From Patescibacteria group bacterium (GTDB taxonomy: Bacteria > Patescibacteriota > Patescibacteriia > 2-12-FULL-60-25), in NCBI GenBank assembly GCA_029004215.1, contig JAQULH010000005.1, positions 1 to 52,394 of the forward strand: 52,394 bases of DNA, read 5' to 3'. Within the stretch, counting starts at the first letter, position 1. Each line of letters starts with the position of its first letter. A program made the translations under genes and the position numbers. Shown one piece after another: positions 1,756-24,604 of the stretch. The notes under the pieces were generated by a model that made no database searches, was not told the origin of the DNA, and saw only the letters and a program-made list of their open reading frames with translations.

Positions 1756-1759
1756 CCTC

Positions 1760-1836
1760 TGTCATTGCGAGCGAAGTTCGACGTAGCGCGGCAATCTCCG
1801 GAGATTGCTTCGTCGCTGCTGCTTCTCGCAATGACA
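1760..1836 (+). repeat. Palindromic repeat, type B (TGTCATTGCGAG family)
   Basis: The element opens with TGTCATTGCGAG and closes with CTCGCAATGACA; the inner arms GGCAATCTC and GAGATTGC also pair. Elements with these ends occur scattered through many bacterial genomes. It starts five bases after the preceding stop codon. A half copy lies at 8043-8076, before prmC. Confidence 0.8.
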
Positions 1837-1882
1837 AAGTTTTCAGTTGACATCCGTGTCCTAAAGACAGAAGATTGTTGCC

Positions 1883-2998
1883 ATGCGCAGGCTTTGGTTT
1901 GACATGCTGTGGAAGACGGATTGGATCCTTTTCGGGTCCATGTTGGCGTTGACTGTCATTGGCCTGCTTATGGTTTACAGCATTGGCGCCTCCAACGAGG
2001 TTGGCAACCTGTTGCAATTCAAGAAGCAGGTCATTGCCGTCATGATCGGCTTGATTGCTTTCATATTGTTGGCCATTGTTGATTATCGCCAGATAAAAAG
2101 TTTAGGCACTGTCATCTATGCCCTTGGTCTGTCCCTTTTGGTCAGCGTCTTGATCTTCGGTTCGACCGTGCGCGGCACGCAGGGCTGGTTTAAGTTTGGT
2201 TCAATCGCCATCCAGCCAGTGGAAATTGCCAAAGTCACCTTTGCGATTTTTTTGGCTTCGTATTTTGCCAAGCATGTTTACCATCGCCTGAACTGGGTCA
2301 CGTTTTTTGGCAGCCTGTTTGCCATGCTGGGTTATGTGGCGCCCATCCTTTTGCAGCCGGATTTTGGTTCGGCCATGGTTATCGTTGCCATGTGGCTGGT
2401 GGGCGTGGCTTTTGCCGGCTTGCGTCCCCGCGCCTGGATGCTTTTGCTTTTAGTGGGAGTCGTCAGCTCTTTGCTGGTCTGGCAATACGCTTTTAAACCA
2501 TATCAAAAAGATAGGTTAATGGCTTTCATTAATCCGCAAATGGATCCATTGGGTGCCGGTTATAATGTTATACAAGCACAGACTGCCATTGGGTCAGGCG
2601 GCATCCTAGGCAAAGGCATTGGCCAAGGCAGCCAATCGCGTTTGCGTTTTTTGCCAGAAGCCTCGACTGACTTTATGTTTGCGGTTATGGGCGAAGAACT
2701 GGGGCTGTTGGGCATTTGTTTGATTTTGGGATTGTTTGGCGTCATCTTATTGCGTTTGTTGCTTTTAGGTAGTCGCATAGCTGATCCTTTTGTGGGTATT
2801 TACTGCGGCATGATAACCGGCATGTTAGGCCTGCACGTACTGATTAACGCCGGCATGAACATGGGTGTCATGCCAGTGACCGGCATACCCTTGCCTTTTG
2901 CTTCGGCCGCGGCCACAGCCCTGGTCGGCGGATACTTGGCTTTAGGTGTAGCGGAAAGCGCGGCCATCCATGGCAAGAGCCAGGCAGCAGAGCGTTGA
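1883..2998 (+). CDS. rodA: Rod-shape-determining peptidoglycan glycosyltransferase RodA
   Basis: A 371-residue polytopic membrane protein of the SEDS family (RodA/FtsW), which polymerises lipid II into glycan strands and works with a class B penicillin-binding protein. Family marks are LLQPDFGSAM (157-166), the QTAIGSGGILGKG stretch (233-245) and FLPEASTDFMFAV (256-268); Asp263 matches the catalytic Asp of E. coli RodA. About ten hydrophobic segments are visible. The usual C-terminal motif PLPFxSYGGS is here PLPFASAAAT (337-346), which is unusual. RodA is preferred to FtsW because of length and similarity in the Asp263 region. No Shine-Dalgarno site is seen before the chosen ATG. Confidence 0.93.
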   Translation: MRRLWFDMLWKTDWILFGSMLALTVIGLLMVYSIGASNEVGNLLQFKKQVIAVMIGLIAFILLAIVDYRQIKSLGTVIYALGLSLLVSVLIFGSTVRGTQGWFKFGSIAIQPVEIAKVTFAIFLASYFAKHVYHRLNWVTFFGSLFAMLGYVAPILLQPDFGSAMVIVAMWLVGVAFAGLRPRAWMLLLLVGVVSSLLVWQYAFKPYQKDRLMAFINPQMDPLGAGYNVIQAQTAIGSGGILGKGIGQGSQSRLRFLPEASTDFMFAVMGEELGLLGICLILGLFGVILLRLLLLGSRIADPFVGIYCGMITGMLGLHVLINAGMNMGVMPVTGIPLPFASAAATALVGGYLALGVAESAAIHGKSQAAER

Positions 2999-6683: not shown

Positions 6684-7091
6684 ATGAAGATGCCTTGGCT
6701 ATTCATGGGGTTGATCGCCGCGGCCATTGTTGGTTGGGCGGCTTTGACCGCGGTTATAATTTATTTTTTTCCGCCAGTGGGTTTGTTGTTTTTTTCCGCC
6801 AGCATTTTTGGCCTTTGCGATCCAGGTCGGCGAGTCAAACATAATTTGATTTTCGTCAAACGCGAAACCAGTGAGAGTGTAGCATCTACGTTGTCGTTCT
6901 TTACGCCAAAAGTGCTTTGGAAGCCGAGGTTGTTCGCGGCCATTGTTTTTTTGTTCGCATTTTTCGGAATTCGTTGGGCGCAATCCAAATTTTCCGATGT
7001 CGGCATCGCGTATTTTGATGGGTTATTTTTATTTTTGTTTGCAGTCAGCGTGGTACTGGCGGTCAGCGCCTGGAAAGAGTCTAAACGATAA
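6684..7091 (+). CDS. Small hypothetical membrane protein
   Basis: A 135-residue product with hydrophobic segments at about 5-28, 30-44, 83-98 and 108-126 and a basic loop between the second and third. No family is recognised. It starts six bases after murA on the same strand and its last 11 bases overlap the end of prmC on the other strand. The coding character is less certain than for its neighbours, but hydrophobic segments and a basic C-terminal end (KESKR) look natural. Confidence 0.6.
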   Translation: MKMPWLFMGLIAAAIVGWAALTAVIIYFFPPVGLLFFSASIFGLCDPGRRVKHNLIFVKRETSESVASTLSFFTPKVLWKPRLFAAIVFLFAFFGIRWAQSKFSDVGIAYFDGLFLFLFAVSVVLAVSAWKESKR

Positions 7092-8031
7092 TCAAAAACC
7101 TCTCACGTCCACACAGGTCTTGTTTGATTAAAATATTGTGCTTTGGAAAAAGTTGGTGAGCTAAGGCCGCCAACTTTTTTGTTTGTCGAGGGTCAACCTC
7201 AAGGAATACAGCAATTCTGTCATTTCGACCGAAGGAGCGAAGGCGACGAAGTGGAGAAATCTTAGTTAACGAAGATTCCTCGACTCGTCGAACTCCCTCG
7301 GAATGACAGAGGGAAGAGATCTGTTGCAGCAGTTTCACGACCAGCGACGATCCGTCACGGCCCGCAAACAGAGCCTTGGCTGGTTCATATTTAGCTACGT
7401 CAGGCATCATGGTTTTTTTATCTGATGATGGCAGGTAGGGGAGATTGGCAACAAAACATAACTCACCCCGCCTTCGGCACCCCTCTCTTAATTTAAGAGA
7501 GGGGAGGGGGTGAGTTAGGGTCTGAATCAGTTTCTTACCCAACAAATCGTCTTTCACAAACTCAACATCAGCTCCGAGACGTTCGGTATTTTGCTGTGCG
7601 ACTTTGAGTGCAGCGCTCGAAACATCTGAGGCAACGACTTTCGCATTCGGACATTCGAGGGCTAGCGTCGCTGCCAAGCAACCGGAGCCAGTGCCTACGT
7701 CGATAATCGTGACACGTGACATGTGACACGTTCGATGTTTAACGAGTTCAACCAGTATTTCCGTCTCAGGTCGTGGGATCAAAGTGTGACGGTTAACAAG
7801 AAAGTCACGTCCAAAAAAAGGTTGCTCGCCTGTCAGATAGGCAATTGGCTCGTGTTTTTTGCGCCGCTGCACCAAACTCAAAAAAGTTTTAGCAACCTTT
7901 GAGTCAACTTTGTCCTTGGCATACGCTATGATATAAGGCCAGTCTTTTTTTAAAACAAATGCCAAAAGCAATTCTGCTTCGCGCGGATCAATGGTTGTTT
8001 TGTGCAATAACTCGGAAATGATGATCGGCAT
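7081..8031 (-). CDS. prmC: Peptide chain release factor N5-glutamine methyltransferase PrmC, with repeat-encoded insertions
   Basis: PrmC (HemK) methylates the Gln of the GGQ motif in release factors RF1 and RF2 using S-adenosylmethionine. The 316-residue protein has the helical N-terminal domain, the linker motif RHTLIPRPETE, the SAM-binding IIDVGTGSGCLA and the catalytic motif FVANLPYLPSS. The usual (D/N)PPY is here NLPY. Three segments absent from normal PrmC are read in frame through palindromic repeats: at 7708-7736 (RTCHMSRVT, just before the SAM motif), 7460-7518 (PLPSLKLREGCRRRGE, before NLPY) and 7217-7309 (about 30 Arg/Ser-rich residues before the last strand). The ATG at 8031 was chosen because the longer form starts with GTG inside another repeat. 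Confidence 0.88.
   Translation of the reverse strand: MPIIISELLHKTTIDPREAELLLAFVLKKDWPYIIAYAKDKVDSKVAKTFLSLVQRRKKHEPIAYLTGEQPFFGRDFLVNRHTLIPRPETEILVELVKHRTCHMSRVTIIDVGTGSGCLAATLALECPNAKVVASDVSSAALKVAQQNTERLGADVEFVKDDLLGKKLIQTLTHPLPSLKLREGCRRRGELCFVANLPYLPSSDKKTMMPDVAKYEPAKALFAGRDGSSLVVKLLQQISSLCHSEGVRRVEESSLTKISPLRRLRSFGRNDRIAVFLEVDPRQTKKLAALAHQLFPKHNILIKQDLCGRERFLIIV
7217..7309 (+). repeat. Palindromic repeat, type D (TGTCATTTCGACCGAAG family), inside prmC
   Basis: The ends CTGTCATTTCGACCGAAGG and CCCTCGGAATGACAG pair, as do AGAAATCTT and GAAGATTCCT inside. The length, 93 bases, is a multiple of three, and on the minus strand it reads as an open stretch within PrmC (SEGVRRVEESSLTK onward). 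Elements with this consensus are scattered through many bacterial genomes, normally between genes. Confidence 0.8.
7460..7518 (+). repeat. Palindromic repeat, type E (AACTCACCCC family), inside prmC
   Basis: Outer arms AACTCACCCC and GGGGTGAGTT enclose a perfect inner palindrome, CCCTCTCTTAA and TTAAGAGAGGG. On the minus strand it is read in frame as part of PrmC just upstream of the catalytic NLPY motif. Confidence 0.8.
7708..7736 (+). repeat. Short palindrome ACACGTGACATGTGACACGT inside prmC
   Basis: The segment is built from repeats of GTGACAC/GTGACAT around a central ACATGT and is nearly self-complementary. It encodes RTCHMSRVT in PrmC, directly before the SAM-binding motif where normal PrmC proteins have a short loop. 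Its status as a mobile or dispersed element is inferred; only one copy is in the window. Confidence 0.5.
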
Positions 8032-8042
8032 GTTTATTCTGT

Positions 8043-8076
8043 AGATTGCCACGTCGTCTGACTCCTCGCAATGACA
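8043..8076 (+). repeat. Half copy of type B repeat
   Basis: GATTGCCACGTCG followed by CCTCGCAATGACA matches the right half of the element at 1760-1836, with a few changes. It lies between the prmC start codon and the divergent gene at 8111. Confidence 0.6.
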
Positions 8077-8095
8077 GACTGTGTGATGGCTATTA

Positions 8096-11384: not shown

Positions 11385-11439
11385 AAAGTATCGAGTGGAT
11401 GGCTTTGACTAGTTACCAGTTACTAGTTACTTTTTACTG
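11366..11439 (+). repeat. Palindromic repeat, type A, copy 2 (overlaps end of hisS)
   Basis: AGTAACGAGTAAAAAGTA on the left pairs with TACTAGTTACTTTTTACT on the right. The left arm contains the last five sense codons and the stop of hisS. The same family is at 791-858. Confidence 0.78.
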
Positions 11440-12389: not shown

Positions 12390-14354
12390 ATGCTGGAGAA
12401 ACGCCGTTTTCAAATAAAATTTCAGAACCTTTTTGGCAAGGTACTTTTGTCATTGGTTTTGGTTGCCTTGGTTGGCCTGGCATCATTGCCTTTCGTCAAC
12501 TCAGCCCATGCCCAGCTCAACCAGAGCCAGACTGTAGTTAACACAACCGCCCAATCAGCCGGCCTGGCCAATACCTCGACGGATTTGCCGACCATCATTG
12601 GCCGGATAATTTACGTTGTCTTGGGCACGGTCGGTGTCATCTTTTTGGCCCTGATGCTTTTTTCGGGTTACCAATACATGACAGCCGGCGGTGACCCGGA
12701 AAAGATCAAATCAGCCATCTCCAGGATCAGGAACGCTGTCATCGGTCTGCTGATAATCGCTTTTTCTTTCGTTATCGTTAACTTCATCTTGAGTTGGCTG
12801 ACAGGACAGACGAACCTTTTTGGAACAGGCGGCGGCACTGGACCGGGTGGCGGTTTTGGCCAGTGGGGCAATACTGGCGGCTTGGGCAATGCCCAAATTA
12901 TCGAATACCACTATCCGGAACCGGGCCAGATGAATGTGCCAAGGAATACGGCCATTGTAATTACTTTTGTGCCTAACATTGATCCAGCTTCTTTTATCAG
13001 CGGTTGGACCCAGGGCCAGCCCACATCAGGTAAGCTCAACGATGCCATGGTGCGTATCCATCCGGAAGGCAGCGCCAGCCAAAACCTTTCGCCTGATATG
13101 GCCTTGGCAGCTGTTTCGCCTGATGGCAAGACAGTCATGATTAAACCCAATGATCCTTTGGGCAATGCGCAAAAGCCGACTTGGTACGAGGTCGTGCTTG
13201 ATCCCGGCATATTGAATGCTTCAGGCACTAAGATTTTTGGAGGCAGTTTTTCCACGGGTTATAACTGGAGGTTCCAAGTATCCACGCAAATCGACAACAC
13301 GCCGCCCCAAGTCCTTTCCGTCATTCCCATGGCCGGTGGGCCATATGCCAGGAACATTGTCATCCAAATCAATTTTAACGAGCCCATGTTCCCGAATGGC
13401 GTGGCAGGCATATACAATAACGGCGGTTTCCAAAACGTCCAGATCTACCAAAGCGACGGCGGCAAGAACGAACAGCAGATTAACGGGGAGTTCCGCCTTT
13501 CAAACGGTTATCGGACAGTTGAGTTTATAACCAACGACGATTGCGGGGTGAATTCCTGTTTGGTCAAGATGCGTTGTTTGCCGGCCGATAAGACTATCCG
13601 AGGCATCATCAAAGCGGCCAGTTTGTTGAACAATGAGTCTGCATTGGCGGCCGGTTATAAGACTGGAATTTTTAACGGGGCGGTTGACATGGCTTTTAAT
13701 TCTTTGGATGGCGATGCCGATGGCAAGGCTACTGGCCCGAAAGACGATCCGGCCGGCGGCTATGACGATTTTCCGTCTTCCAAACCCAAAACGCCGCCTT
13801 TTGCTTTCCTGACCAACGCGCAAATCAATCGCGACCCGCCGTTCATTAAGACGATTGATCCCGGAGTTAAGGCGGATAAAATTCCCCTCGATAAGAATAT
13901 CGACATAGCCTGGCTCTCAGACCCTAACGACATGAACGGCGTGCTTATGGCGCAAACTGTCACGTCCAGGGGTTTTAGGATCTATACTGAAGGCCCGCAA
14001 GAAACGGATCCCAACACCTGGTGGTTCTTTACTAAAATGATAAACGTCGATGACAACGGACAGGAGGCCAGCTCGACCAGTAAGCATGTCCAATCTTTGG
14101 CAACCATCTACCACCGGCCTTTCATCAATTCAGACATTCCCAAGCAAGGCCAGGACTTGAATAATTATTATGACCCTTATGTCCGGCACTATGTGATGAA
14201 TATTTACCAAAACTGTTTTAATCCGGCAGCTAAGGTCAAGAACGGCATAAAGACAACTTCAGCTCCCAAACCGAATTTTTGCAATGACACCGCGGCCCTG
14301 GGAACTGATTTGGGCGGAGGTAACTTTTATTGCGACTTTATCAAGAAGCCATGA
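12390..14354 (+). CDS. Exported T4SS pilin-domain fusion with Ig-like ectodomain, 654 aa
   Basis: A signal peptide ends near residue 41 (NSAHA). Two hydrophobic helices at about 68-94 and 111-135, around GYQYMTAGGDPEKIKSAIS, match the TrbC/VirB2-like T4SS pilin fold common in CPR surface proteins. A Gly-rich linker (about 144-171) leads to an ectodomain of SbsA-type Ig-like modules; PEPGQMNVPRNTAIVITF and INFNEPMFPNG resemble their edge strands. It contains a few Cys residues. The protein probably sits in the membrane through the pilin part and displays the rest outside. Its stop overlaps the start of the giant gene in ATGA. Whether the pilin part polymerises is unknown. Confidence 0.85.
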   Translation: MLEKRRFQIKFQNLFGKVLLSLVLVALVGLASLPFVNSAHAQLNQSQTVVNTTAQSAGLANTSTDLPTIIGRIIYVVLGTVGVIFLALMLFSGYQYMTAGGDPEKIKSAISRIRNAVIGLLIIAFSFVIVNFILSWLTGQTNLFGTGGGTGPGGGFGQWGNTGGLGNAQIIEYHYPEPGQMNVPRNTAIVITFVPNIDPASFISGWTQGQPTSGKLNDAMVRIHPEGSASQNLSPDMALAAVSPDGKTVMIKPNDPLGNAQKPTWYEVVLDPGILNASGTKIFGGSFSTGYNWRFQVSTQIDNTPPQVLSVIPMAGGPYARNIVIQINFNEPMFPNGVAGIYNNGGFQNVQIYQSDGGKNEQQINGEFRLSNGYRTVEFITNDDCGVNSCLVKMRCLPADKTIRGIIKAASLLNNESALAAGYKTGIFNGAVDMAFNSLDGDADGKATGPKDDPAGGYDDFPSSKPKTPPFAFLTNAQINRDPPFIKTIDPGVKADKIPLDKNIDIAWLSDPNDMNGVLMAQTVTSRGFRIYTEGPQETDPNTWWFFTKMINVDDNGQEASSTSKHVQSLATIYHRPFINSDIPKQGQDLNNYYDPYVRHYVMNIYQNCFNPAAKVKNGIKTTSAPKPNFCNDTAALGTDLGGGNFYCDFIKKP

Positions 14355-17300
14355 AGCTGCGCCTTTTCTTTGCGGCCTTGGCCGTCTCAACGCTCTGTAT
14401 CACGACAGGGGCTTTGGTTACTCCGGCCCATGCCCAGCTTAACACCGGTTTGAACGAGATAGGGAATACTATCAAGCTGACGGGGACTGATCCGCGCATC
14501 ATAGCCGGCCGCATCATCAACGTGGCCTTGGGCGTGATAGGCATCATCTTACTGACCCTGATCCTTTACGCAGGTTTCCTTTGGATGACTTCGGGCGGCG
14601 ATGCAGCCAAAGTCGAGAAGGCACAACATATCATCCGCAATGCCATTATCGGGTTGATTATCATCCTCATGTCGTGGGCCATTGCTTATTATGTAATTAA
14701 TGTACTGCTTAATGTGACAGGCGGTGGTGGAGGCGGAGGAGGCGGGGGCGGTGGTGGAGGCGGAGGAGGTTTAGGGGGTGGGGGAGCCGTGTCGTTTAGG
14801 ATTACGGCTGCCAGCCCGCAAGGCGACCAAAGCAATCCGTATAACATGAACGCCAAGATTAATGTCACTTTTAGCCAGGACATTAATCCTGACATTCCAA
14901 AAAATTGGCAAAACTACGTTAAAGTCACTGATCAGGCCGGCGTGAACGTAAATGGCGCATGGGAATTGATGAACGGCAATGCCAAATGGATGAGGTTTAC
15001 GCCGCCCGACAATTGCCAACAAGATCCCAGCCAAAAATGTTTTGCCAAAAATACTTTGTTCCTGGTCTCGATTGATAAAGGCAAGTTCACTTCGGCTACC
15101 AAGGAGGCCTTGGCATGCGGCGGTTTTTATCCGGCCTGTAACTTTAAGTTTTACATTGGCGACAAGATGGACACTACGCCGCCCAATGTCACAATCACTG
15201 ATTTATACGATTACCAAAGTTTTTGCGATGACAAACCATACATCAGCATACCGGCCAAGGCAGTGGATGATTTTGGAGTCTCGATCATGCAATGGCTGGA
15301 AGATGAAGTCCAATGGGACTCTGACGGTCCGACCACAATACCCACGCCCAAGGAATTCAGTTCAGCCATGGATTGGTCAACGGTCGGTAAGATCTTGAAG
15401 CAGCCTTACCTCATTTCGGTTAAAGCTACTGACACTGACAACAACACCGGGTCGCAAAGCCTGCATTTAATCGTGCTCAAGAACCATTGCTGCAACAAGA
15501 CCAAAGATGCTGATGAGTTGGATGTTGATTGCGGCGGCAAGGATTGTTTGGGCTGTTCAAATGCCCCATGTTCGGACAATGCACAATGCGCCAGCGGATT
15601 TTGTGAGAATGGTGTTTGTATCGACAAGCCGGTGATTACCAATGTCAGCCCGACCAGCGGCAAGGACGGCACGTTCGTGTCAATTTGGGGAGCAAACTTC
15701 GGAGAGTCCGGCACCACGACTTTTATGGGTCCGCCGGCCCTCCAAGCCCACGCCCCGCAAGCCTGCGTGGCCTTGGGCGTAAAAACTTGGACTAATAATT
15801 ACATTTTGGTTGAGGTCCCCAAAGAAGCCAAGGCCGGCCCGATCCAGGTTTATAATGCACAGAGCAAGTTGTCCGACCGGACGGATAAGGATCCGGGGCC
15901 AATCCTGCCTGACTTTGATGTCAACAACGTGACCAGACCGGGTATTTGTCTGATCAAACCGGATACAGGCAAGTCGGGGATTGATGCCACTCTCATCGGC
16001 GGAGGATTCGGCCCGACCCAAGGTGACAGGGTTATTGGTTTTGGCGCCAAGACACTTATTCCGCAAACCAAAAGTTGGAATAATGAGAATGTCATTTTTG
16101 TAATTCCTGAATTATACGCCGGTTATTTCAGCGTGGGCATTAAGAACAAAGCCGGCGACCCTATTTCCAATAACGTGCCGTTTAACTTGCAGGCTGAACC
16201 GCCTGAAGTGGCGCCGACCATTTCAGCCATAACTCCCAACCATGGTCCGACCGGGCAATACATGACAATCATTGGTCAACATTTCGGTTCCAGCCAAGGC
16301 TTGGTTAAATTTGTTGATGTCGCCACTAATAGCGAAATTTCGGGTGATACTAACTTCCCGCAAGCCTGCGGCTCGGGCTGGTGGACTGACACCCAGATAG
16401 TTGTCAAAGTCCCGATCATGACGGATCAGGCTGGCAAGGCAATCCAGCCGCTCAATCCGGGAAGCACTCCAAACTTTAAAGTTTATGTTTTGCGCAGCAA
16501 AGACAACAAGCCATCAAACCAAGTTGATTTCCTGTTTTCCAACGAGGCTTTAGGCCCGGGCATTTGCCGCATTAACCCGACAGCCGGGCCAACCAAAACA
16601 GTAGTCCAAATTTACGGTGAGCGTTTTGGCGCCAGCAAAGGCCCATCAGACAAAGTCGTGTTTGCGAACAATGCAGTTGCTGACACTTATAATAATTGGG
16701 GGCCAGAAGAGATTGATGTTGTAGTACCGAGTGCAGCCGTGACCGGTAAGATGTTCATCAGCCCGGGAGCCCCGCCACCTTCGAATGAAGTGCAGTTTTT
16801 GGTTGGTGATTGCCGCGACATTCCAGAGCTATGCAGTGCCGGCCAGATCTGTTGCCCGGGCGGTTCATGCGCCAGCGACAAATGTCCCTCGGCCTCGTAC
16901 CAAGCCATGTACGGCTGGCAAATGACGACCGGCATAATCCCCCGGGCGCCGAGCGTGGTCCAAAATTGCACACTCAATCCCGCGACTACGACGTCTTTGA
17001 TCCCGCCCTCGCCCTCGCCTTCGAGCCAGTGGCCGGGTGGTGACAGCGTTTGCACGGGCCAAGCTAAGATCGGAGTCATGTTCGACATGCCCGTGTCCGG
17101 CGATTCGGCTGCCTTACAAAGCCTATTCAAACTCATGCAGTGTACCGGCAGTGGCGCTGACCCGTGTTTGGAGAGGACGCCGGTTGATATTGCTAATTTT
17201 ACAAAACAACCAACTATCCACCTGAACGGCAATGTCATCTGTTCGCAGCCGCCGGATGTGGCTGATTGCCGGGATTACATCACCTTCGAGCCCAAGAGCA

Positions 17301-20300
17301 AGCTGCCGACCAATACGACTTTTGAAGTTTATGTTTCACAAGACGTGACGAGCGTGGGCCAGTTTGGCGATAAGATGCAGGAAGACCAGTCTTGTGCAGA
17401 ACCAGGGTCAGGGGCTTGTTTTAGGTTCAAGACACGCAATGATGACAATACTTGCGACGTGGGCTTTGTCTATGTCTCACCGTATTCAACGGCCGTTGAA
17501 GGTGCCCAACCCACACCCCTGCCTTATGAAGCTTTGCCGGTTACCAAGGACGCGGTCTGTAACCTTTTAAGCTGCAAAGGATTTAATTGGTCGTGGTCAA
17601 CAAGGTTAAATGGGCCGACGACTCTGGCCAGCATAGCCACTCCTTTGCAGACCGAGCTTTATAACGGCCAGACTTATGTTTCGTGTCATCAGGGCGTAGT
17701 GCCCGGAGATCAGGAGGCGACCAATCCGCCGGTCGAGGTAGTGGCTAAGGAGATCATCTCTGCCAAGGAAGGCATCGGCGATCTTTTCATCGGGCGCGTC
17801 ATCCCCCAGGTCATTGACCATTCACCGGATTGCAACCAGGCCTGTTTGAATGCTTATATCTGGGCCAGGTTCAACACTTCGCTCAAGCTTTCGACTATTA
17901 ATACCAAGAACATCCAAGTCTATAAATGCAAGAATGAGAACTGTTTGGAAAACGATTTGATCGGGGCCGAGAATTTAAGTGAAAAATATAATTTCCAAAT
18001 CAAGCTTTGGCCTGACAAGTTGAATCTTGATTCGAGCCTCTTAAGCGACTTCTTTGGCACGAGCACCGTCAGAACCAACAGCTTCATCTTGGTGGACCCG
18101 CGTGATTACAAGACAGATCCGAACAATCCCAAACCGCCTTTGGTGTTGGAAGCGGGCCAATTTTATACGGTGCGCCTCAAGGGCGGGGTGTCCGGAGCCA
18201 TTGCCAGTAAATATGATACTTTGATGCCGCAAGATTTTGTTTGGAAGTTTAGGACAGCCACAGGCGACAGGGCCTATTGCCAACCCGATCACTTGCTGGT
18301 TTATCCTTCCAGGGCCATTGAGAATCGCGTAGGCGACCGCGAGCTTTTCCAGTCAAAAGCCTTTAGCGCACCCGACGAATGCCGGGCCGATGGCCAGATG
18401 CTGTTGTTGACCAAGGATTTCACTTGGAATTTTGTTGACCAGAACCACAAACCTGATTTGACGCAACAGGTGGCCAAGTATGCGCCTTATTCTAATGGCA
18501 TTGATGCCGATGGGACGCTGCCTAAAGGATGCTCGTCTGATTGCAGGGCGACCGGTTCAGACGGCGTATTCGGGTTAACTGCCAGATGTGGTAATGGAAT
18601 AGTTGAAACTACTGATGACATTTATTGTGATCCGTTGACTAAGCTGACCAAGGCGGGTCAACCTTGTAAACTCATGCCACCCATCTCGGGGGCAGGTGAG
18701 GAGTGCGACGGCAATTTGCCCAACGATCCTACGGCGGCCAAATGCAATACGGCCAGTTGTCTTTGGATGGATACGCCGACCATCAACCAATCCGGCACTT
18801 GCGGCAATTTTCTGAAGGATTCAAATAAGGGCGAGATGTGCGATCCTGGTTTGCGTTGTTTCGACACTACGACTTCAACTGTGGCTTCAGGCACGCCTTG
18901 CGATTCTCCGGGCCAAACAGACAATATTACGTCAGCCGTATGCCAAGCAGCGGGTGGCAAGTGTGAAATCCGCAATTATCTCGGATGTTCCACTGGTTGT
19001 AAAAATTTAGGCGCCTCATCTGTCCAAAGCTCGGAGTGCGGCAATGGCAGTGTGGGTTATGGCGAGGATTGTGATCAAGGATCGAATAATGGAACCGGTG
19101 GTTGCTCGATGGATTGCTTACACATCGGTTCAAGCAGTGATGTCGGGGCGCTTTGCCATAACGGTATTTTGGAACAGGGTGAAACCTGTGAATCTCCGGG
19201 CCTTGGCGAACCTTTGCCGCCGTATTGCGATCCGATTAAATGCGTTACGCTCGGCAACCAAGATTTCGGTCCAGCGCTTGGCCAGTGCGGCAATGGCGTG
19301 ATCGATGCCAACAAGGGCGAAGAGTGTGATGATGGCAATCACCTGAACGGCGACGGTTGCAGTGCGGTTTGTCTGAACGAAGGCTCTTCTTGGAGGTATA
19401 CCCCCCCAAGTCTGTGCGGCAATGGCATTATAGAGAAAGGTGAGACTTGTGAAGCCCAAAAAGGCAATGGCCTGGTTGATCCCATGCAGATTGCTGAAAT
19501 CATTGGCAAGGGAGTGTTAGACCAGGACAAGATTAAAAAGACACAAATCGGTGTTGAATACTCAGGCGTAAAAGCCGAGGCTACTTTTGGCGTACGCTGC
19601 GGATTCTTAAGCGAGGCGGCCTGCGGGTTAAATGGGACATTCATTGACCCGGATTACGGCCTGGACAAGGATGGTTGCTGCAATTTACGTCCCAAAAAGA
19701 TCGAAAGTTATCCGGCCAGCGGCAGCCAGGACGTTTGCCGCAATACCATGATCTCGGTTAAATTCAACTCTGAGATGGATGTGCCAACAGTCTTGAATAA
19801 TTTTGTGGTGGCTAAAGAGATAAGCGATGCAAAATGCCCGACCGGCACCATCCAGCTGACTGATGCTACGCCGCAGGTTAAGGGTTTATGGGGTTGGATA
19901 GTTGCCAAGTGGCATTCTTTGGTCAAATGGTTAAAAGGCCAACCAGCTTATGCCGGTATTTGGTGCGGCAACATGGTGGCAGGCAATCTCCAAGCATCAA
20001 CCAGCACCAAAGAATTTTATTACACGCTGGGCGAGGCGCTGGATGCCAATACGCGCTATATCGTCAGGCTGAACGGGACGCCGTATGTTGATTTAAATGA
20101 TTTGTCCAAGCACGTAGGCATCAAGACAAAAGATGGCGTCGTGGCCTTCCAAGACGTGGGTGACTTGAATTCTCCTCCGCCGCAGAATTGGAATTACACT
20201 TGGTGGTTCCAGACAGGCAAGGATATTTGCCGCATCAACAGTATCTTGGTGGAAGACTTGGATCCCGACCACCCCGCCTATTTCCAAACGGCCAATGAAC

Positions 20301-23300
20301 AGCATCCCTTCCGCGGGACAGCTTTGGCCTTGCATAACGGAAAAGTGGAAAAACTTTCACCGGTTGATCAGTACCAATGGAAGTGGTGGGGTTGGACTTC
20401 AAATAATTTGCTAATCGCTGATATTGTGATAGGCAGTGATGTTGAACAGGGGTCAGTCACTGAAGCGACGGTCGCGGCCAAAACTCAAAACGGAAGCGCC
20501 ATAATTTCGGCCGGCCTGGAAGTGACCAGCGATACGATTGACGGCGAGCAGAAGCTCAGCCAGCCGCAAGTCATCTTCGGTGCCTTGCCCATCATGGTTT
20601 TCATTTGCGAAAATCCTTGGCCCGAGTTGTCCAAAGCTCCGTTCAGGGACATGGATCCAATCAAAGATTCTACCAAATCATTGGCTAAGACGATTTTTGT
20701 AAAAGGGCCATTTTTCAACTTCCAGACAATGTATTGCCGTGACAGTGACGCGGGATTATTACCCGAACTCGAAGTCCATCCCGTGCCACCTGCTGGTGTT
20801 GATCAGTTGCAAGGCATCCTGCGCCAGTATTTGTTAACCTTTAAAGAACCGACTTTTAAGCATGATGGCATCGGTATCCGCGTCATGAGCAACCTTTACC
20901 ATGATACTTTGCGCGATTGGTATAGGCGCCAAGGCTTTACCGGATCACCGCAGTCAATCAAAGTGGATGGCTATGAAGCCCTGAAAGATTCTGGCACGGT
21001 TTATGTGGGTTTTGCCAATACCGAAACCGTCGGCCAGAATATCTATCAAAACATTTTGGTCATTTCCCACAATCTGGACTCGTTCGCGGAAACTACCAAA
21101 ATTTTTAACCAAATGGTCGAGAGCCTGGCCTTTAACATCAATTTTGAAAAAGACAATACCAACACCTGTCTTGACGACATAGGTTTACCAACCAAGTATG
21201 TTTTTGATTCCAAGACAACCCAACTTGGCGCAGTTTTAACCAAAGGCAGGCCGATAACTTGTTCGGCTGATTTTGATTGTGTCACGGCCAGCACCAGCAC
21301 GCATTGCGCCAGTTACAAATATAAATTGCAAAGAGATTTGCTGCGCTTGCAGGATTTCAGTATTTTTAAGTCATCCTTAAAATCTTATTACACGAATAAG
21401 GGCTATTACCCGCAGCTGGCCGAAGGCACCTTCCTTTACGGCCGGACCAATTCCCGCTGGCCGTCCTGGCAAGAAACTTTTGCCCAAGCCCTAGGTTTAG
21501 GCAACTCCATCCCGACTGATCCGGTCAACCGTTATTTGTCATGCGGCTTTTGTTTGCGGAAGTCTGATGGCCAGTTAATGAATAACCTGCCATGTACAGT
21601 GGCTACAGATTGTCCTTCAGATGCCTATAGTTGCGAACCTGATAAGGGTTTTGACCCGCAAACCTGTTGGAATGTCACGCAACGCCAGTTCTTGTGTCCG
21701 GATATTTATCCCGGCAATTATGCGCAGGTGCCTCATTCAAATTTCTACTCTTATCGTGCTTCAGATGGCGGGCGGAGGTTTGAGCTTGGTTCGAACTTTG
21801 AAATCCCGCCGCCCAGCCCCGATAACTTCAAGAATTGGTGGTATCCGGAGTATGCACCCAACATCAAAGTTTGTTATACCTCTTCGACTATTTCGGACGG
21901 CCGCGAGTGCCAGGCTGATGCTGATTGTAAGCCTTGTGCTAACCCTTACGACACCAATAACTGCAAGGTAGCTAACGGGCCGGTTGGTTCTTGCCGGACA
22001 TTAGGGACTTTCAAGTACCGAGATATTTGTAACAACGGGACTTTTGGCGAAGGCGGAGTTTGCGGTGATGGGATTATCGGCCAGGTCTGCCAAGGCGGCA
22101 GCCAGAACGGCCAGGGTTGCAAGGCTGCCAGTGATTGTCCGGGCGGCCAATGCGTGGATGAAACTTGCGAACTTGGCCAGACGCACGTTGCCTCATGTTT
22201 TCTGGGTGCTAAACAAGGGACAAAGCTCCAGGTTTGCGATGCTTGCACGGGATGGAATGATGATCCAAAGGTTTCGGTTTGCCGTGAAACTGCAGTTTGT
22301 GGCAATGGCCGCATTGATAAATGGTGCAGCGGCGGTGTCTATGGACATCTTGCCTGCAGTTCAGGCAATGATTGCACTGACAGCAACGGTTCATATGCTT
22401 GTGTGCCGGCCCTGGTCGGTTCGCCACCCCACACCGAAGCATGCGACGATGGCGTGTTAAACGGCACTTATGGCCATTGCAACACTGATTGCACTGGCAT
22501 CGATAAATATTGCGGCAACGGCAAGCTTGATCCGGGTGAAAATTGTGACAGGGGAGTCGGGCCTGGAGGCAACGGTATTTGGTGCAAGGACAAAACCAAT
22601 TGTTATGGCTATCTGGGCATTCCGGGCGTCACTTATGGCCAAAGCTGCAGTTCGAATTGCCAGGATAAGGCGGCTTATTGCGGCGACGGACAAGTTTATC
22701 CTGACCCAGCTTTTGAAGAATGTGATGGTACTGTTTTGACCATGGCAGGAGCGACATGCAACTCGGGTCCACTAACAAATCAGCCATGCAAGGAAGATAA
22801 GGATTGTAATCTGGGCCAGACGCCCAACGTTTGCGGCGGTGACATATACCATCAATCATGCGCTAACGTCAAAATCGGCCGTTGCGCCACTGATGTGATG
22901 GTTTGCGTGGACAATGGACAGATGCCTTTTTACCTTTCAAAGGGTTGGTTCGTTACAGCGCATACATATACCCAATGCAATAAATTGAGCGATTGCGCCA
23001 ACGGCCAAGTTTGCGTGGCCTTGGCCAATGCCGGCGGGCCAGAAGGCGGCTGTACCAGCGACAACCAGTGCACAGTGGGCAACCTGCTCGGTAAATGCGT
23101 CCAATATGATACGGCGCATATCCGCCAGTGCAATGCGCCCGGCACGCCTAACCAATGCAAGTATGAGTCGTCTTGGAGCGAGTGCCGACCCCAGCATCTT
23201 TGCGGCGATGGCGTGATTGATCCTGGTGAGGAGTGCGACGATGGATCAAACAACACGGTCTTTAATGCCTGCCTCCCGACTTGTAAGAAAAACACATGCG

Positions 23301-24604
23301 GTGACGGCAACCTGTGGAACAATGTTGAAGAATGCGACAACGGAACTAACAATGGCAAAAAAGTTTGTAAGGCCCAATACCAGTCAACCTGCAATGACTG
23401 CACTTTGCAATGCAAGAACATGACAGCCTCAGGCGGTTATTGCGGCAATAATATTATTGAGACAAATGAACAATGCGATGGCAATGATGTGATTGCATCC
23501 AAGGTCTATGACCCGTCGGCCCAGTTAGTCGGGCTTTACACCAAGCAACACTATATTCTCCAGCCGGATTTGACAGCCACCTGGGCCCAACCTCAAGCAA
23601 AATCTTACGTTGGCACTTTGAATCCACTCACAGACAATGTAAAAGTCATGAAAAATTCCGGTTCCATCAACTGCCAGGCCTTGGGTTATGATTTTGCTGT
23701 CGACAGCTGGGCTAATGCAGCGATTCTGGTCAACAAACCGTCCATTACTTTGGACAGCGGCCCCAATGGTTTGTTTGTCAATTACTGGGGAAGCGAGGCT
23801 AACACCATACATAACCAAATTCTTAATGGGAAACCACCCAGAATTTTGAACCTAGTCAAGACCACCAACGACCCTGTATTTATCAATAGGTTCCAAGACA
23901 ATGCTTTGCTTAACACGATCTTTGATGTCTGTGGCCTGATTAGGAAGGAGAAGGCCAGTGATGGGATATATGATTTTTATTGGATTGATCCGAGCCTGTG
24001 GCCGACAAGGCAAGGATTTTGGAACTGCGTTAACAGCTTTGGTTCCAAGTACGGTTTCCAGGTCGTAGGCGAGGCCAATGACAAGCCATTATGCGAAGTC
24101 AACTGCCAGATTGCAGGCTGCGGCCGCTGCATAGATGAAAGCGGCAATACGAAAATTTCCGGGTATGTGATCGGTAAGGATAAGGCGCTCGATACCGACT
24201 CGCCGGGTTGGGAATTGGATACCATAGCCGGAGCCCGTGTGACCTTGCAATACAACGGCTTGAACATCACTCAAGTCTTCTCGGATGATAAAGGTTATTT
24301 TGAATTTGATAATCTGAACAATCGTAAAGAATGTTCCAACTACAGGTTGGTGTTGGAGAAGTCCAATTATGAAAGAAGTATTGCCGGATTGTATGATCCC
24401 AACGATACGAACAAAACAACAAGCCTGACGAGTATTTGCGAGTGTGGTTATATAACGCAGACGACGGATGCCTTCTCAGCCGCTAATTTTGTAAACGGGA
24501 GCAAGGTGTGGATCGAAGTTGATACCAAAGCCTGTCCCCAGAATTTTGTATGGCCTCCGCCGGATAACTGTAAATTTGTAAAAACTTCATCCCTACCGCA
24601 ATAA
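14351..24604 (+). CDS. Giant exported surface protein, 3417 aa: T4SS pilin domain, IPT/TIG domains, Cys-rich repeats
   Basis: Start at the ATGA overlap (14351). A signal peptide ends near residue 28 (PAHA). Two pilin-type helices follow at about 53-80 and 93-120, then a Gly tract (about 123-145). The ectodomain has, in order: an Ig-like module; about four IPT/TIG domains (425-820; for example PVITNVSPTSGKDGT and ITPNHGPTGQYMTIIG); Ig-like modules near 1140-1300; a first cluster of DUF4215-type Cys repeats (about 1410-1720; CGNGVIDANKGEECDDG); SbsA-like modules (about 1780-2100); a second Cys cluster (about 2570-3045; CGDGVIDPGEECDDG, CGNGKLDPGENC); and a carboxypeptidase-regulatory-like beta domain (about 3265-3350). 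It probably serves attachment to a host or neighbour cell or a surface, by analogy with multi-domain adhesins. Nothing in it shows enzymatic activity. Confidence 0.92.
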   Translation: MKLRLFFAALAVSTLCITTGALVTPAHAQLNTGLNEIGNTIKLTGTDPRIIAGRIINVALGVIGIILLTLILYAGFLWMTSGGDAAKVEKAQHIIRNAIIGLIIILMSWAIAYYVINVLLNVTGGGGGGGGGGGGGGGGGLGGGGAVSFRITAASPQGDQSNPYNMNAKINVTFSQDINPDIPKNWQNYVKVTDQAGVNVNGAWELMNGNAKWMRFTPPDNCQQDPSQKCFAKNTLFLVSIDKGKFTSATKEALACGGFYPACNFKFYIGDKMDTTPPNVTITDLYDYQSFCDDKPYISIPAKAVDDFGVSIMQWLEDEVQWDSDGPTTIPTPKEFSSAMDWSTVGKILKQPYLISVKATDTDNNTGSQSLHLIVLKNHCCNKTKDADELDVDCGGKDCLGCSNAPCSDNAQCASGFCENGVCIDKPVITNVSPTSGKDGTFVSIWGANFGESGTTTFMGPPALQAHAPQACVALGVKTWTNNYILVEVPKEAKAGPIQVYNAQSKLSDRTDKDPGPILPDFDVNNVTRPGICLIKPDTGKSGIDATLIGGGFGPTQGDRVIGFGAKTLIPQTKSWNNENVIFVIPELYAGYFSVGIKNKAGDPISNNVPFNLQAEPPEVAPTISAITPNHGPTGQYMTIIGQHFGSSQGLVKFVDVATNSEISGDTNFPQACGSGWWTDTQIVVKVPIMTDQAGKAIQPLNPGSTPNFKVYVLRSKDNKPSNQVDFLFSNEALGPGICRINPTAGPTKTVVQIYGERFGASKGPSDKVVFANNAVADTYNNWGPEEIDVVVPSAAVTGKMFISPGAPPPSNEVQFLVGDCRDIPELCSAGQICCPGGSCASDKCPSASYQAMYGWQMTTGIIPRAPSVVQNCTLNPATTTSLIPPSPSPSSQWPGGDSVCTGQAKIGVMFDMPVSGDSAALQSLFKLMQCTGSGADPCLERTPVDIANFTKQPTIHLNGNVICSQPPDVADCRDYITFEPKSKLPTNTTFEVYVSQDVTSVGQFGDKMQEDQSCAEPGSGACFRFKTRNDDNTCDVGFVYVSPYSTAVEGAQPTPLPYEALPVTKDAVCNLLSCKGFNWSWSTRLNGPTTLASIATPLQTELYNGQTYVSCHQGVVPGDQEATNPPVEVVAKEIISAKEGIGDLFIGRVIPQVIDHSPDCNQACLNAYIWARFNTSLKLSTINTKNIQVYKCKNENCLENDLIGAENLSEKYNFQIKLWPDKLNLDSSLLSDFFGTSTVRTNSFILVDPRDYKTDPNNPKPPLVLEAGQFYTVRLKGGVSGAIASKYDTLMPQDFVWKFRTATGDRAYCQPDHLLVYPSRAIENRVGDRELFQSKAFSAPDECRADGQMLLLTKDFTWNFVDQNHKPDLTQQVAKYAPYSNGIDADGTLPKGCSSDCRATGSDGVFGLTARCGNGIVETTDDIYCDPLTKLTKAGQPCKLMPPISGAGEECDGNLPNDPTAAKCNTASCLWMDTPTINQSGTCGNFLKDSNKGEMCDPGLRCFDTTTSTVASGTPCDSPGQTDNITSAVCQAAGGKCEIRNYLGCSTGCKNLGASSVQSSECGNGSVGYGEDCDQGSNNGTGGCSMDCLHIGSSSDVGALCHNGILEQGETCESPGLGEPLPPYCDPIKCVTLGNQDFGPALGQCGNGVIDANKGEECDDGNHLNGDGCSAVCLNEGSSWRYTPPSLCGNGIIEKGETCEAQKGNGLVDPMQIAEIIGKGVLDQDKIKKTQIGVEYSGVKAEATFGVRCGFLSEAACGLNGTFIDPDYGLDKDGCCNLRPKKIESYPASGSQDVCRNTMISVKFNSEMDVPTVLNNFVVAKEISDAKCPTGTIQLTDATPQVKGLWGWIVAKWHSLVKWLKGQPAYAGIWCGNMVAGNLQASTSTKEFYYTLGEALDANTRYIVRLNGTPYVDLNDLSKHVGIKTKDGVVAFQDVGDLNSPPPQNWNYTWWFQTGKDICRINSILVEDLDPDHPAYFQTANEQHPFRGTALALHNGKVEKLSPVDQYQWKWWGWTSNNLLIADIVIGSDVEQGSVTEATVAAKTQNGSAIISAGLEVTSDTIDGEQKLSQPQVIFGALPIMVFICENPWPELSKAPFRDMDPIKDSTKSLAKTIFVKGPFFNFQTMYCRDSDAGLLPELEVHPVPPAGVDQLQGILRQYLLTFKEPTFKHDGIGIRVMSNLYHDTLRDWYRRQGFTGSPQSIKVDGYEALKDSGTVYVGFANTETVGQNIYQNILVISHNLDSFAETTKIFNQMVESLAFNINFEKDNTNTCLDDIGLPTKYVFDSKTTQLGAVLTKGRPITCSADFDCVTASTSTHCASYKYKLQRDLLRLQDFSIFKSSLKSYYTNKGYYPQLAEGTFLYGRTNSRWPSWQETFAQALGLGNSIPTDPVNRYLSCGFCLRKSDGQLMNNLPCTVATDCPSDAYSCEPDKGFDPQTCWNVTQRQFLCPDIYPGNYAQVPHSNFYSYRASDGGRRFELGSNFEIPPPSPDNFKNWWYPEYAPNIKVCYTSSTISDGRECQADADCKPCANPYDTNNCKVANGPVGSCRTLGTFKYRDICNNGTFGEGGVCGDGIIGQVCQGGSQNGQGCKAASDCPGGQCVDETCELGQTHVASCFLGAKQGTKLQVCDACTGWNDDPKVSVCRETAVCGNGRIDKWCSGGVYGHLACSSGNDCTDSNGSYACVPALVGSPPHTEACDDGVLNGTYGHCNTDCTGIDKYCGNGKLDPGENCDRGVGPGGNGIWCKDKTNCYGYLGIPGVTYGQSCSSNCQDKAAYCGDGQVYPDPAFEECDGTVLTMAGATCNSGPLTNQPCKEDKDCNLGQTPNVCGGDIYHQSCANVKIGRCATDVMVCVDNGQMPFYLSKGWFVTAHTYTQCNKLSDCANGQVCVALANAGGPEGGCTSDNQCTVGNLLGKCVQYDTAHIRQCNAPGTPNQCKYESSWSECRPQHLCGDGVIDPGEECDDGSNNTVFNACLPTCKKNTCGDGNLWNNVEECDNGTNNGKKVCKAQYQSTCNDCTLQCKNMTASGGYCGNNIIETNEQCDGNDVIASKVYDPSAQLVGLYTKQHYILQPDLTATWAQPQAKSYVGTLNPLTDNVKVMKNSGSINCQALGYDFAVDSWANAAILVNKPSITLDSGPNGLFVNYWGSEANTIHNQILNGKPPRILNLVKTTNDPVFINRFQDNALLNTIFDVCGLIRKEKASDGIYDFYWIDPSLWPTRQGFWNCVNSFGSKYGFQVVGEANDKPLCEVNCQIAGCGRCIDESGNTKISGYVIGKDKALDTDSPGWELDTIAGARVTLQYNGLNITQVFSDDKGYFEFDNLNNRKECSNYRLVLEKSNYERSIAGLYDPNDTNKTTSLTSICECGYITQTTDAFSAANFVNGSKVWIEVDTKACPQNFVWPPPDNCKFVKTSSLPQ
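14719..14784 (+). repeat. Poly-glycine coding tract
   Basis: This run of GGN codons encodes 17 consecutive Gly residues, then a Leu and more Gly, joining the pilin domain of the giant protein to its ectodomain. It is almost pure G with scattered C, T and A, and is the most repetitive coding stretch in the window. Confidence 0.9.

What the first reader, a model, noticed from the sequence alone, without database searches (positions are those of the whole stretch)
7081..8031. prmC interrupted in frame by three different palindromic repeats
Three elements of different sequence are read through as parts of PrmC: a 29-base one before the SAM motif, a 59-base one before the catalytic NLPY, and a 93-base one before the last strand. 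The motifs for SAM binding and catalysis remain intact, so the protein may still work. This resembles the in-frame palindromic elements of Rickettsia (RPE), but with several repeat types in one gene.
Basis: partly seen in the sequence, partly recalled or inferred. Interest (0 to 1): 0.78.

Follow-up and report, generated by a model that had tools for sequence, protein, structure and literature searches.

The report
Repeats lodged in PrmC's tolerant loops
In a tiny uncultured bacterium, an essential translation enzyme (PrmC) carries three unrelated scraps of repetitive DNA that are read in frame as extra surface loops, and related bacteria carry other, different repeats in the very same loops, so these loops act as recurrent, harmless landing sites for repetitive DNA.

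Summary
The gene is real PrmC with an intact frame and intact motifs, under purifying selection. Elements A (7213-7312) and B (7460-7521) are strong hairpins with copies elsewhere in the genome. Element C (7707-7740) belongs to a dispersed family of 7-bp units, but the copy here is not palindromic by itself and adds only about 2 residues net. The closest congener, G002, lacks A and B. AlphaFold puts A and B in disordered loops (pLDDT about 57) on an otherwise confident fold.

Relatives carry other repeats at the same three loops: heptamer arrays, CHSRAGGNP-type, RRQES..RLRGDD-type, GTAG..CTAC palindromes and A-type. In 199 PrmC genes I mapped 36 heptamer arrays with 34 different heptamers. 31 of them lie just before a beta strand of the Rossmann fold, opposite the active site, and 1 lies on the active-site side. 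Arrays are 7-fold denser in PrmC than in its flanks. TsaD is a second hot spot (13 arrays in 30 genes); MurA and LysS have none (0 in 60).

Most likely reading: neutral, repeatedly refilled permissive loops. It works like Rickettsia RPEs and intragenic REPs, but with many families and homologous sites. The mobilising enzyme is unknown, and no RAYT-type transposase was found.

The parts
7081..8031 (-). prmC, peptide chain release factor N5-glutamine methyltransferase, 316 aa, frame intact
   Evidence: fold match to the E. coli PrmC-RF1 structure 2b3t (TM 0.72/0.82); dN/dS about 0.13-0.14 vs G002
7213..7312 (-). Element A, about 100 bp imperfect palindrome, read as SLCHSEGVRRVEESSLTKISPLRRLRSFGRNDRI in the loop between a helix (229-244) and strand beta-5 (273-278)
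   Evidence: Copies in own genome; RNA fold z -7.2; absent from G002, +28 aa net; pLDDT about 57
7460..7521 (-). Element B, hairpin with perfect 12-bp core arms (7480-7491/7493-7504) and outer arms, read as TLTHPLPSLKLREGCRRRGEL in the loop before strand beta-4 and NLPY
   Evidence: z -6.5; absent from G002, +13 aa net; pLDDT about 57-58
7707..7740 (-). Element C, about three 7-bp units (TGTCACA/TGTCACG) of a dispersed palindromic heptamer family, read as CHMSRVT in the loop before strand beta-1 and DVGTGSG
   Evidence: Family hits 19 vs 0 in reversed control; period-7 array; this copy is not a hairpin (z -0.2)
7681..7701 (-). SAM-binding motif DVGTGSG, intact
   Evidence: G113, G115 and G117 invariant or nearly so
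7435..7446 (-). catalytic motif NLPY (NPPY type), intact
   Evidence: N196, P198, Y199 invariant
8040..8080 (+). partial A-type repeat just upstream of the ATG, which creates the upstream GTG extension of the frame
   Evidence: Sequence resembles the A2 copy inside gene C1|37

Best explanation
PrmC here is a working methyltransferase whose helix-to-strand loops, on the face of the Rossmann fold away from SAM and the active site, tolerate extra residues. Short dispersed repeats (hairpin elements A and B; 7-bp-unit elements such as C) enter or arise at many places in these genomes. Copies that keep the frame, carry no stop and fall in such loops survive and are translated as disordered loops. 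Over time the same loops are refilled by whatever repeat family is active in that lineage, so homologous loops hold unrelated repeats in different species. SHOWN: in-frame reading, presence/absence between congeners, dispersed copies, loop placement in the model, recurrence at homologous sites. INFERRED: neutrality, survivorship as the filter, normal translation. UNKNOWN: the enzyme or process that spreads the repeats.
For: Copies of A, B and C elsewhere in the genome. G002 lacks A and B, and congeners hold other repeats at those sites. Frame and motifs are intact and dN/dS is 0.13-0.14 outside the inserts. Model: mean pLDDT 90, inserts A and B about 57. 36 period-7 arrays in 199 PrmC genes, 34 different heptamers; mapped by hand, 31 precede a beta strand and 1 follows one. 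PrmC vs flanks: 30 arrays per 162 kb vs 11 per 433 kb, p 1e-9. Genome-wide: 17 of 43 element copies in own sample and 11 of 33 in G002 lie inside genes in frame; TsaD, a thymidylate-kinase-like gene and a glycosyltransferase are examples. Identical heptamers recur within the genome (14 of 21 arrays) far more than expected for random heptamers (0.3). Sister species hold different elements at one site in another gene, C1|37.
Against: No transposition event, insertion enzyme or consistent target duplication was demonstrated; one 24-bp insert in G002 has a 6-7 bp direct repeat, another clean insert has none. Density in PrmC and TsaD far exceeds MurA and LysS, so simple tolerance must differ strongly between proteins, or something targets these genes. 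Only four conserved genes were compared. Neither protein nor activity was measured.
Confidence: 0.75

Rival explanations
1. The heptamer arrays are not mobile: they grow in place by 7-nt polymerase slippage inside loops that are already free to vary, and only A and B are true insertions.
For: 34 different heptamers among 36 PrmC arrays; period 7 far exceeds periods 8-12. Heptanucleotides are the commonest class of long simple repeats in many bacteria, and slippage has been proposed (Mrazek 2007, as cited in PMC4679880).
Against: Within the own genome 14 of 21 arrays share an identical heptamer with another array, vs 0.3 expected. Full C copies are large palindromes. Slippage would not copy one heptamer to many loci.
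Confidence: 0.35
2. The inserts have been recruited for function, e.g. mRNA hairpins that pause ribosomes during PrmC folding, or loops that bind a partner, which is why PrmC and TsaD are hot spots.
For: A and B are very strong hairpins. PrmC is 7-fold denser in arrays than its flanks, and TsaD is also dense.
Against: Sequence, length and structure differ between congeners, and many arrays are not hairpins. Insert-free PrmC is common. Model confidence in inserts A and B is low.
Confidence: 0.1
3. prmC is a decaying pseudogene that accumulates repeats.
For: PrmC evolves faster than most genes between these species (rank about 90 of 96 by dN/dS).
Against: Intact frame, all catalytic residues kept, dN/dS 0.13-0.14, score above the family cut-off. 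A PrmC-family match is present in 280 of 287 genomes of the phylum.
Confidence: 0.02
4. The inserts are removed before the protein is made or used (intron-like splicing, ribosome hopping, or excision from the protein).
For: None direct.
Against: Net lengths keep the frame and the inserts contain no stop codon; neither would be needed if they were removed. No splicing motif was noted.
Confidence: 0.03

Closest known systems
Rickettsia palindromic elements (RPE)
   Same: Dispersed palindromic repeats read in frame inside unrelated, apparently functional genes; nearly half of the copies lie in genes (PMC10969869).
   Different: RPEs are about 150 bp with conserved peptides and were described in Rickettsia. 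Here the elements are 20-100 bp, of several unrelated families, read as different peptides in different copies, and recur at homologous loops across genera and phyla. No sequence relation was tested.
Intragenic REPs (GTAG and CGTC families; PMC3733652)
   Same: Small palindromes inside ORFs, sometimes two per gene (uvrA, uvrB). Different REPs lie at about the same site of recB in two Xanthomonas species. G013 and G020 PrmC carry GTAG...CTAC palindromes.
   Different: A, B and C do not carry the GTAG/CGTC single-tag architecture. No Y1 transposase (RAYT family domain) was found in the genome. Hot spots here are PrmC and TsaD, over a whole phylum.
Heptanucleotide repeats (TAACTGA arrays, PMC4679880; LSSRs)
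   Same: Tandem 7-bp units, dispersed in the genome, occasionally inside ORFs when the unit has no stop.
   Different: TAACTGA is one heptamer, mostly upstream of start codons. Here many heptamers occur, some as inverted arrays, and in conserved enzymes' loops.
Borg tandem repeats (PMC9879509)
   Same: Independently arising repeats create new disordered regions in proteins.
   Different: A different replicon and a different repeat type; here units of 7 bp and hairpins inside bacterial housekeeping genes.
MITEs
   Same: Short inverted-repeat elements without coding capacity of their own, dispersed.
   Different: No parent transposon, terminal repeat/target duplication pair or transposase identified.

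Membership tests
PrmC / HemK methyltransferase | Match above curated TIGR03534 cut-off, SAM motif and N-x-P-Y motif | tested here: met
   218.5 bits vs 199.1; DVGTGSG and NLPY intact; fold match 2b3t
Rickettsia palindromic element (RPE) | In-frame insertion into functional genes | tested here: met
Rickettsia palindromic element (RPE) | Sequence homology to an RPE family, about 150 bp, conserved peptide | not tested
   No RPE sequence compared; elements here are 34-100 bp and read as different peptides in different copies
GTAG/CGTC REP | GTAG or CGTC tag at one end of a 20-40 bp palindrome | tested here: not met
   A, B and C show no such tag by inspection; GTAG-ended palindromes occur only in relatives G013 and G020
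GTAG/CGTC REP | Associated Y1 transposase (RAYT) | tested here: not met
   PF01797: no match in the 95.6% complete genome; 6 of 14 control genomes positive
MITE | Terminal inverted repeats | tested here: met
   A: 13-nt ends, 92% complementary; B: 18-nt, 83%
MITE | Target-site duplication and related transposase | tested here: inconclusive
   One G002 insert has a 6-7 bp direct repeat, another clean insert has none; no search for a parent transposase apart from PF01797
Heptanucleotide repeat (LSSR) | Tandem 7-bp units in excess of other unit lengths | tested here: met
   Own sample: 21 arrays at period 7, 0 at periods 5, 8, 10, 11; PrmC set. Element C is one

The most novel reading that the evidence does not exclude
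Across Patescibacteria, and occasionally other phyla, a still unknown repeat-spreading process with a fixed 7-nt step, together with hairpin elements, repeatedly fills the same non-catalytic loops of a few translation-quality enzymes (PrmC, TsaD). Lineage-specific heptamer families turn over quickly, making these enzymes natural recorders of repeat activity and of loop tolerance; possibly these genes are preferred targets and not merely tolerant.
Probability: 0.25. Interest if true: 0.8.

Novelty: new variant of a known kind. Interest (0 to 1): 0.62.

Why it matters
It extends in-frame repeat insertion from Rickettsia and a few REP-rich species to a huge uncultured phylum. It also shows something single genomes cannot: independent repeats converge on the same loops of the same conserved enzymes. 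That makes an old question testable, namely whether intragenic palindromes are tolerated junk or targeted/recruited, because each lineage is a replicate. It is also a source of naturally insertion-tested loop sites in PrmC and TsaD, and a warning for protein models and annotations of these genomes.

Tried and rejected
Pseudogene: rejected (frame, motifs, dN/dS). Splicing or bypass: no support. Element A on plasmids: no match. RAYT as mobiliser: no Y1_Tnp domain found. PrmC as the only affected gene: rejected, since TsaD, a thymidylate-kinase-like gene, a glycosyltransferase and others carry repeats too. A general feature of all conserved genes: rejected, MurA and LysS have 0 arrays in 60 genes. 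Strict hairpin search alone (arms of 12 or more) was too weak for degenerate elements. One phylum batch (L325-L344) was picked for long frames and is excluded from the density statistics. One pair of duplicate records (L078 = L342) is counted once in the placement and heptamer tallies. Literature searches found nothing on in-frame repeats in PrmC or in Patescibacteria genes; subscription papers are not held.

Full report
THE GENE. Window 8031..7081 (minus) is one open frame that scores as PrmC above the curated cut-off. SAM and catalytic motifs are intact, and the predicted structure (mean pLDDT 90.4) matches the E. coli PrmC-RF1 complex 2b3t best. Outside the inserts dN/dS against the sister species G002 is 0.13-0.14. 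That is purifying selection, although PrmC is among the faster genes (median of 96 gene pairs 0.055). The genome is a 1.2 Mb, 95.6% complete Patescibacteria-type genome; its class includes Uhrbacteria, because G233 (same class) carries the identical PrmC sequence to a named Uhrbacteria record.

THE THREE ELEMENTS. A (7213-7312) and B (7460-7521) are strong hairpins (z -7.2 and -6.5) with further copies in the genome. C (7707-7740) is a piece of a dispersed family built from 7-bp units. A complete member is a palindrome of about 70 bp (z -6.0), but the piece in prmC is not (z -0.2). Against G002, A adds about 28 residues, B 13 and C about 2. In the model A and B are low-confidence loops (about 57) in an otherwise confident fold.

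THE SAME LOOPS HOLD OTHER REPEATS IN RELATIVES. G001 carries ATTCAGCGCAGCGGA-type repeats at the N-terminal, B and A sites. G002 has a heptamer array (NVQCSMF) at A. G016 has CHPRAGGDP..RLHGND at C, G026 has CHSRAGGNP at A, G035 has RRQES..RLRGDD at B, and G020 has an A-type element at A plus a GTAG..CTAC palindrome at B. G013 has such a palindrome at C, and G029 has three different heptamer arrays. Named Moranbacteria and Uhrbacteria, an Acidobacteriaceae and an Anaerolineae record show the same kind of insert. In most PrmC proteins outside the lineage these loops are nearly constant in length. The repeat nature of the relatives' inserts rests on their internal structure or resemblance to families seen here; their copy numbers in each relative's own genome were not counted.

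QUANTIFICATION. In 199 PrmC genes (one duplicate removed) there are 36 period-7 arrays with 34 different heptamers. Mapped by hand onto the model, 11 precede beta-1, 4 beta-2, 1 beta-3, 9 beta-4 and 6 beta-5. 4 lie in the N-terminal domain or extension and only 1 follows a strand on the active-site side. In class I methyltransferases the loops before strands lie opposite the SAM site (established knowledge). In the 179 genes not chosen for length, arrays number 30 in 162 kb of PrmC against 11 in 433 kb of flanking DNA (7.3-fold, p 1e-9; related sequences make the p-value optimistic). MurA and LysS have none in 60 genes, while TsaD has 13 in 30.

GENOME-WIDE. In a 418 kb sample of the own genome, 43 element copies of the library used were found: 17 inside genes in frame, 22 intergenic, 4 at gene ends or edges. 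In 437 kb of G002 it is 11 of 33. Since 89% of the DNA is coding, genes are strongly depleted relative to chance, as expected if most insertions are removed by selection. The own sample shows 21 arrays of period 7 and none of periods 5, 8, 10 or 11. 14 of the 21 share an identical heptamer with another array in the genome, against 0.3 expected for random heptamers, so heptamer families spread within a genome. Sister species can hold different elements at one site in another gene (C1|37).

A USEFUL ARITHMETIC POINT. An array of three or more 7-bp units visits all three frames, so a heptamer free of stops on one strand is free of stops in every frame. Such arrays can enter genes in any phase provided the net length is a multiple of three (inference from the sequence). 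26 of the 36 consensus heptamers are open in this way, close to the 69% expected at random; the rest avoid stops by shortness or variant units.

MECHANISM. Best supported is survivorship: repeats appear widely, and the copies that remain in genes are in-frame and in loops that bear no function. Why PrmC and TsaD are so much denser than MurA and LysS is not settled; tolerance and targeting are both open. What spreads the repeats is unknown: no Y1 transposase domain and no consistent target duplication.

KNOWN AND NEW. In-frame palindromes inside genes are known (RPE, PMC10969869; intragenic REPs, PMC3733652, including different REPs at about the same site of recB in two Xanthomonas). Heptamer repeats are known (PMC4679880). 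New here, as far as the held literature shows, are the occurrence in Patescibacteria, the mixture of families in one gene, and the convergence of independent repeats on homologous non-catalytic loops of PrmC and TsaD across many lineages.

Noticed in passing
G000:C6:30372-31598 (L035, L365): TsaD of the same genome carries at least three repeat inserts of different families (NVQRTTYNV, NVTRDTRHV..VTSHESQ, EIRDSAKRRFEI); TsaD of relatives has 13 heptamer arrays in 30 genes.
   Followed up: partly
window 33930-36323 and its G002 orthologue (L274): The PEP synthase/PPDK-like gene of G002 has two in-frame inserts absent from the window; one 24-bp palindrome is flanked by a 6-7 bp direct repeat (CGCGGC).
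   Followed up: partly
window 1756-1883, 789-811, 11411-11431: Intergenic A-type repeat and two intergenic heptamer arrays (AACGAGT, AGTTACT).
   Followed up: no
L020 835-2430 (G000:C1): O-antigen ligase-like protein with several repeat-like stretches (PPLKLRGG, VILSAVEGS near the end).
   Followed up: no
window 14330-24604: A 3424-aa open frame with many CGNG..EECDDG cysteine-rich repeats, apparently a giant secreted or surface protein.
   Followed up: no
G003:C5 end (67115): The G003 contig breaks inside prmC, possibly at a repeat; assembly breaks may hide more inserts.
   Followed up: no
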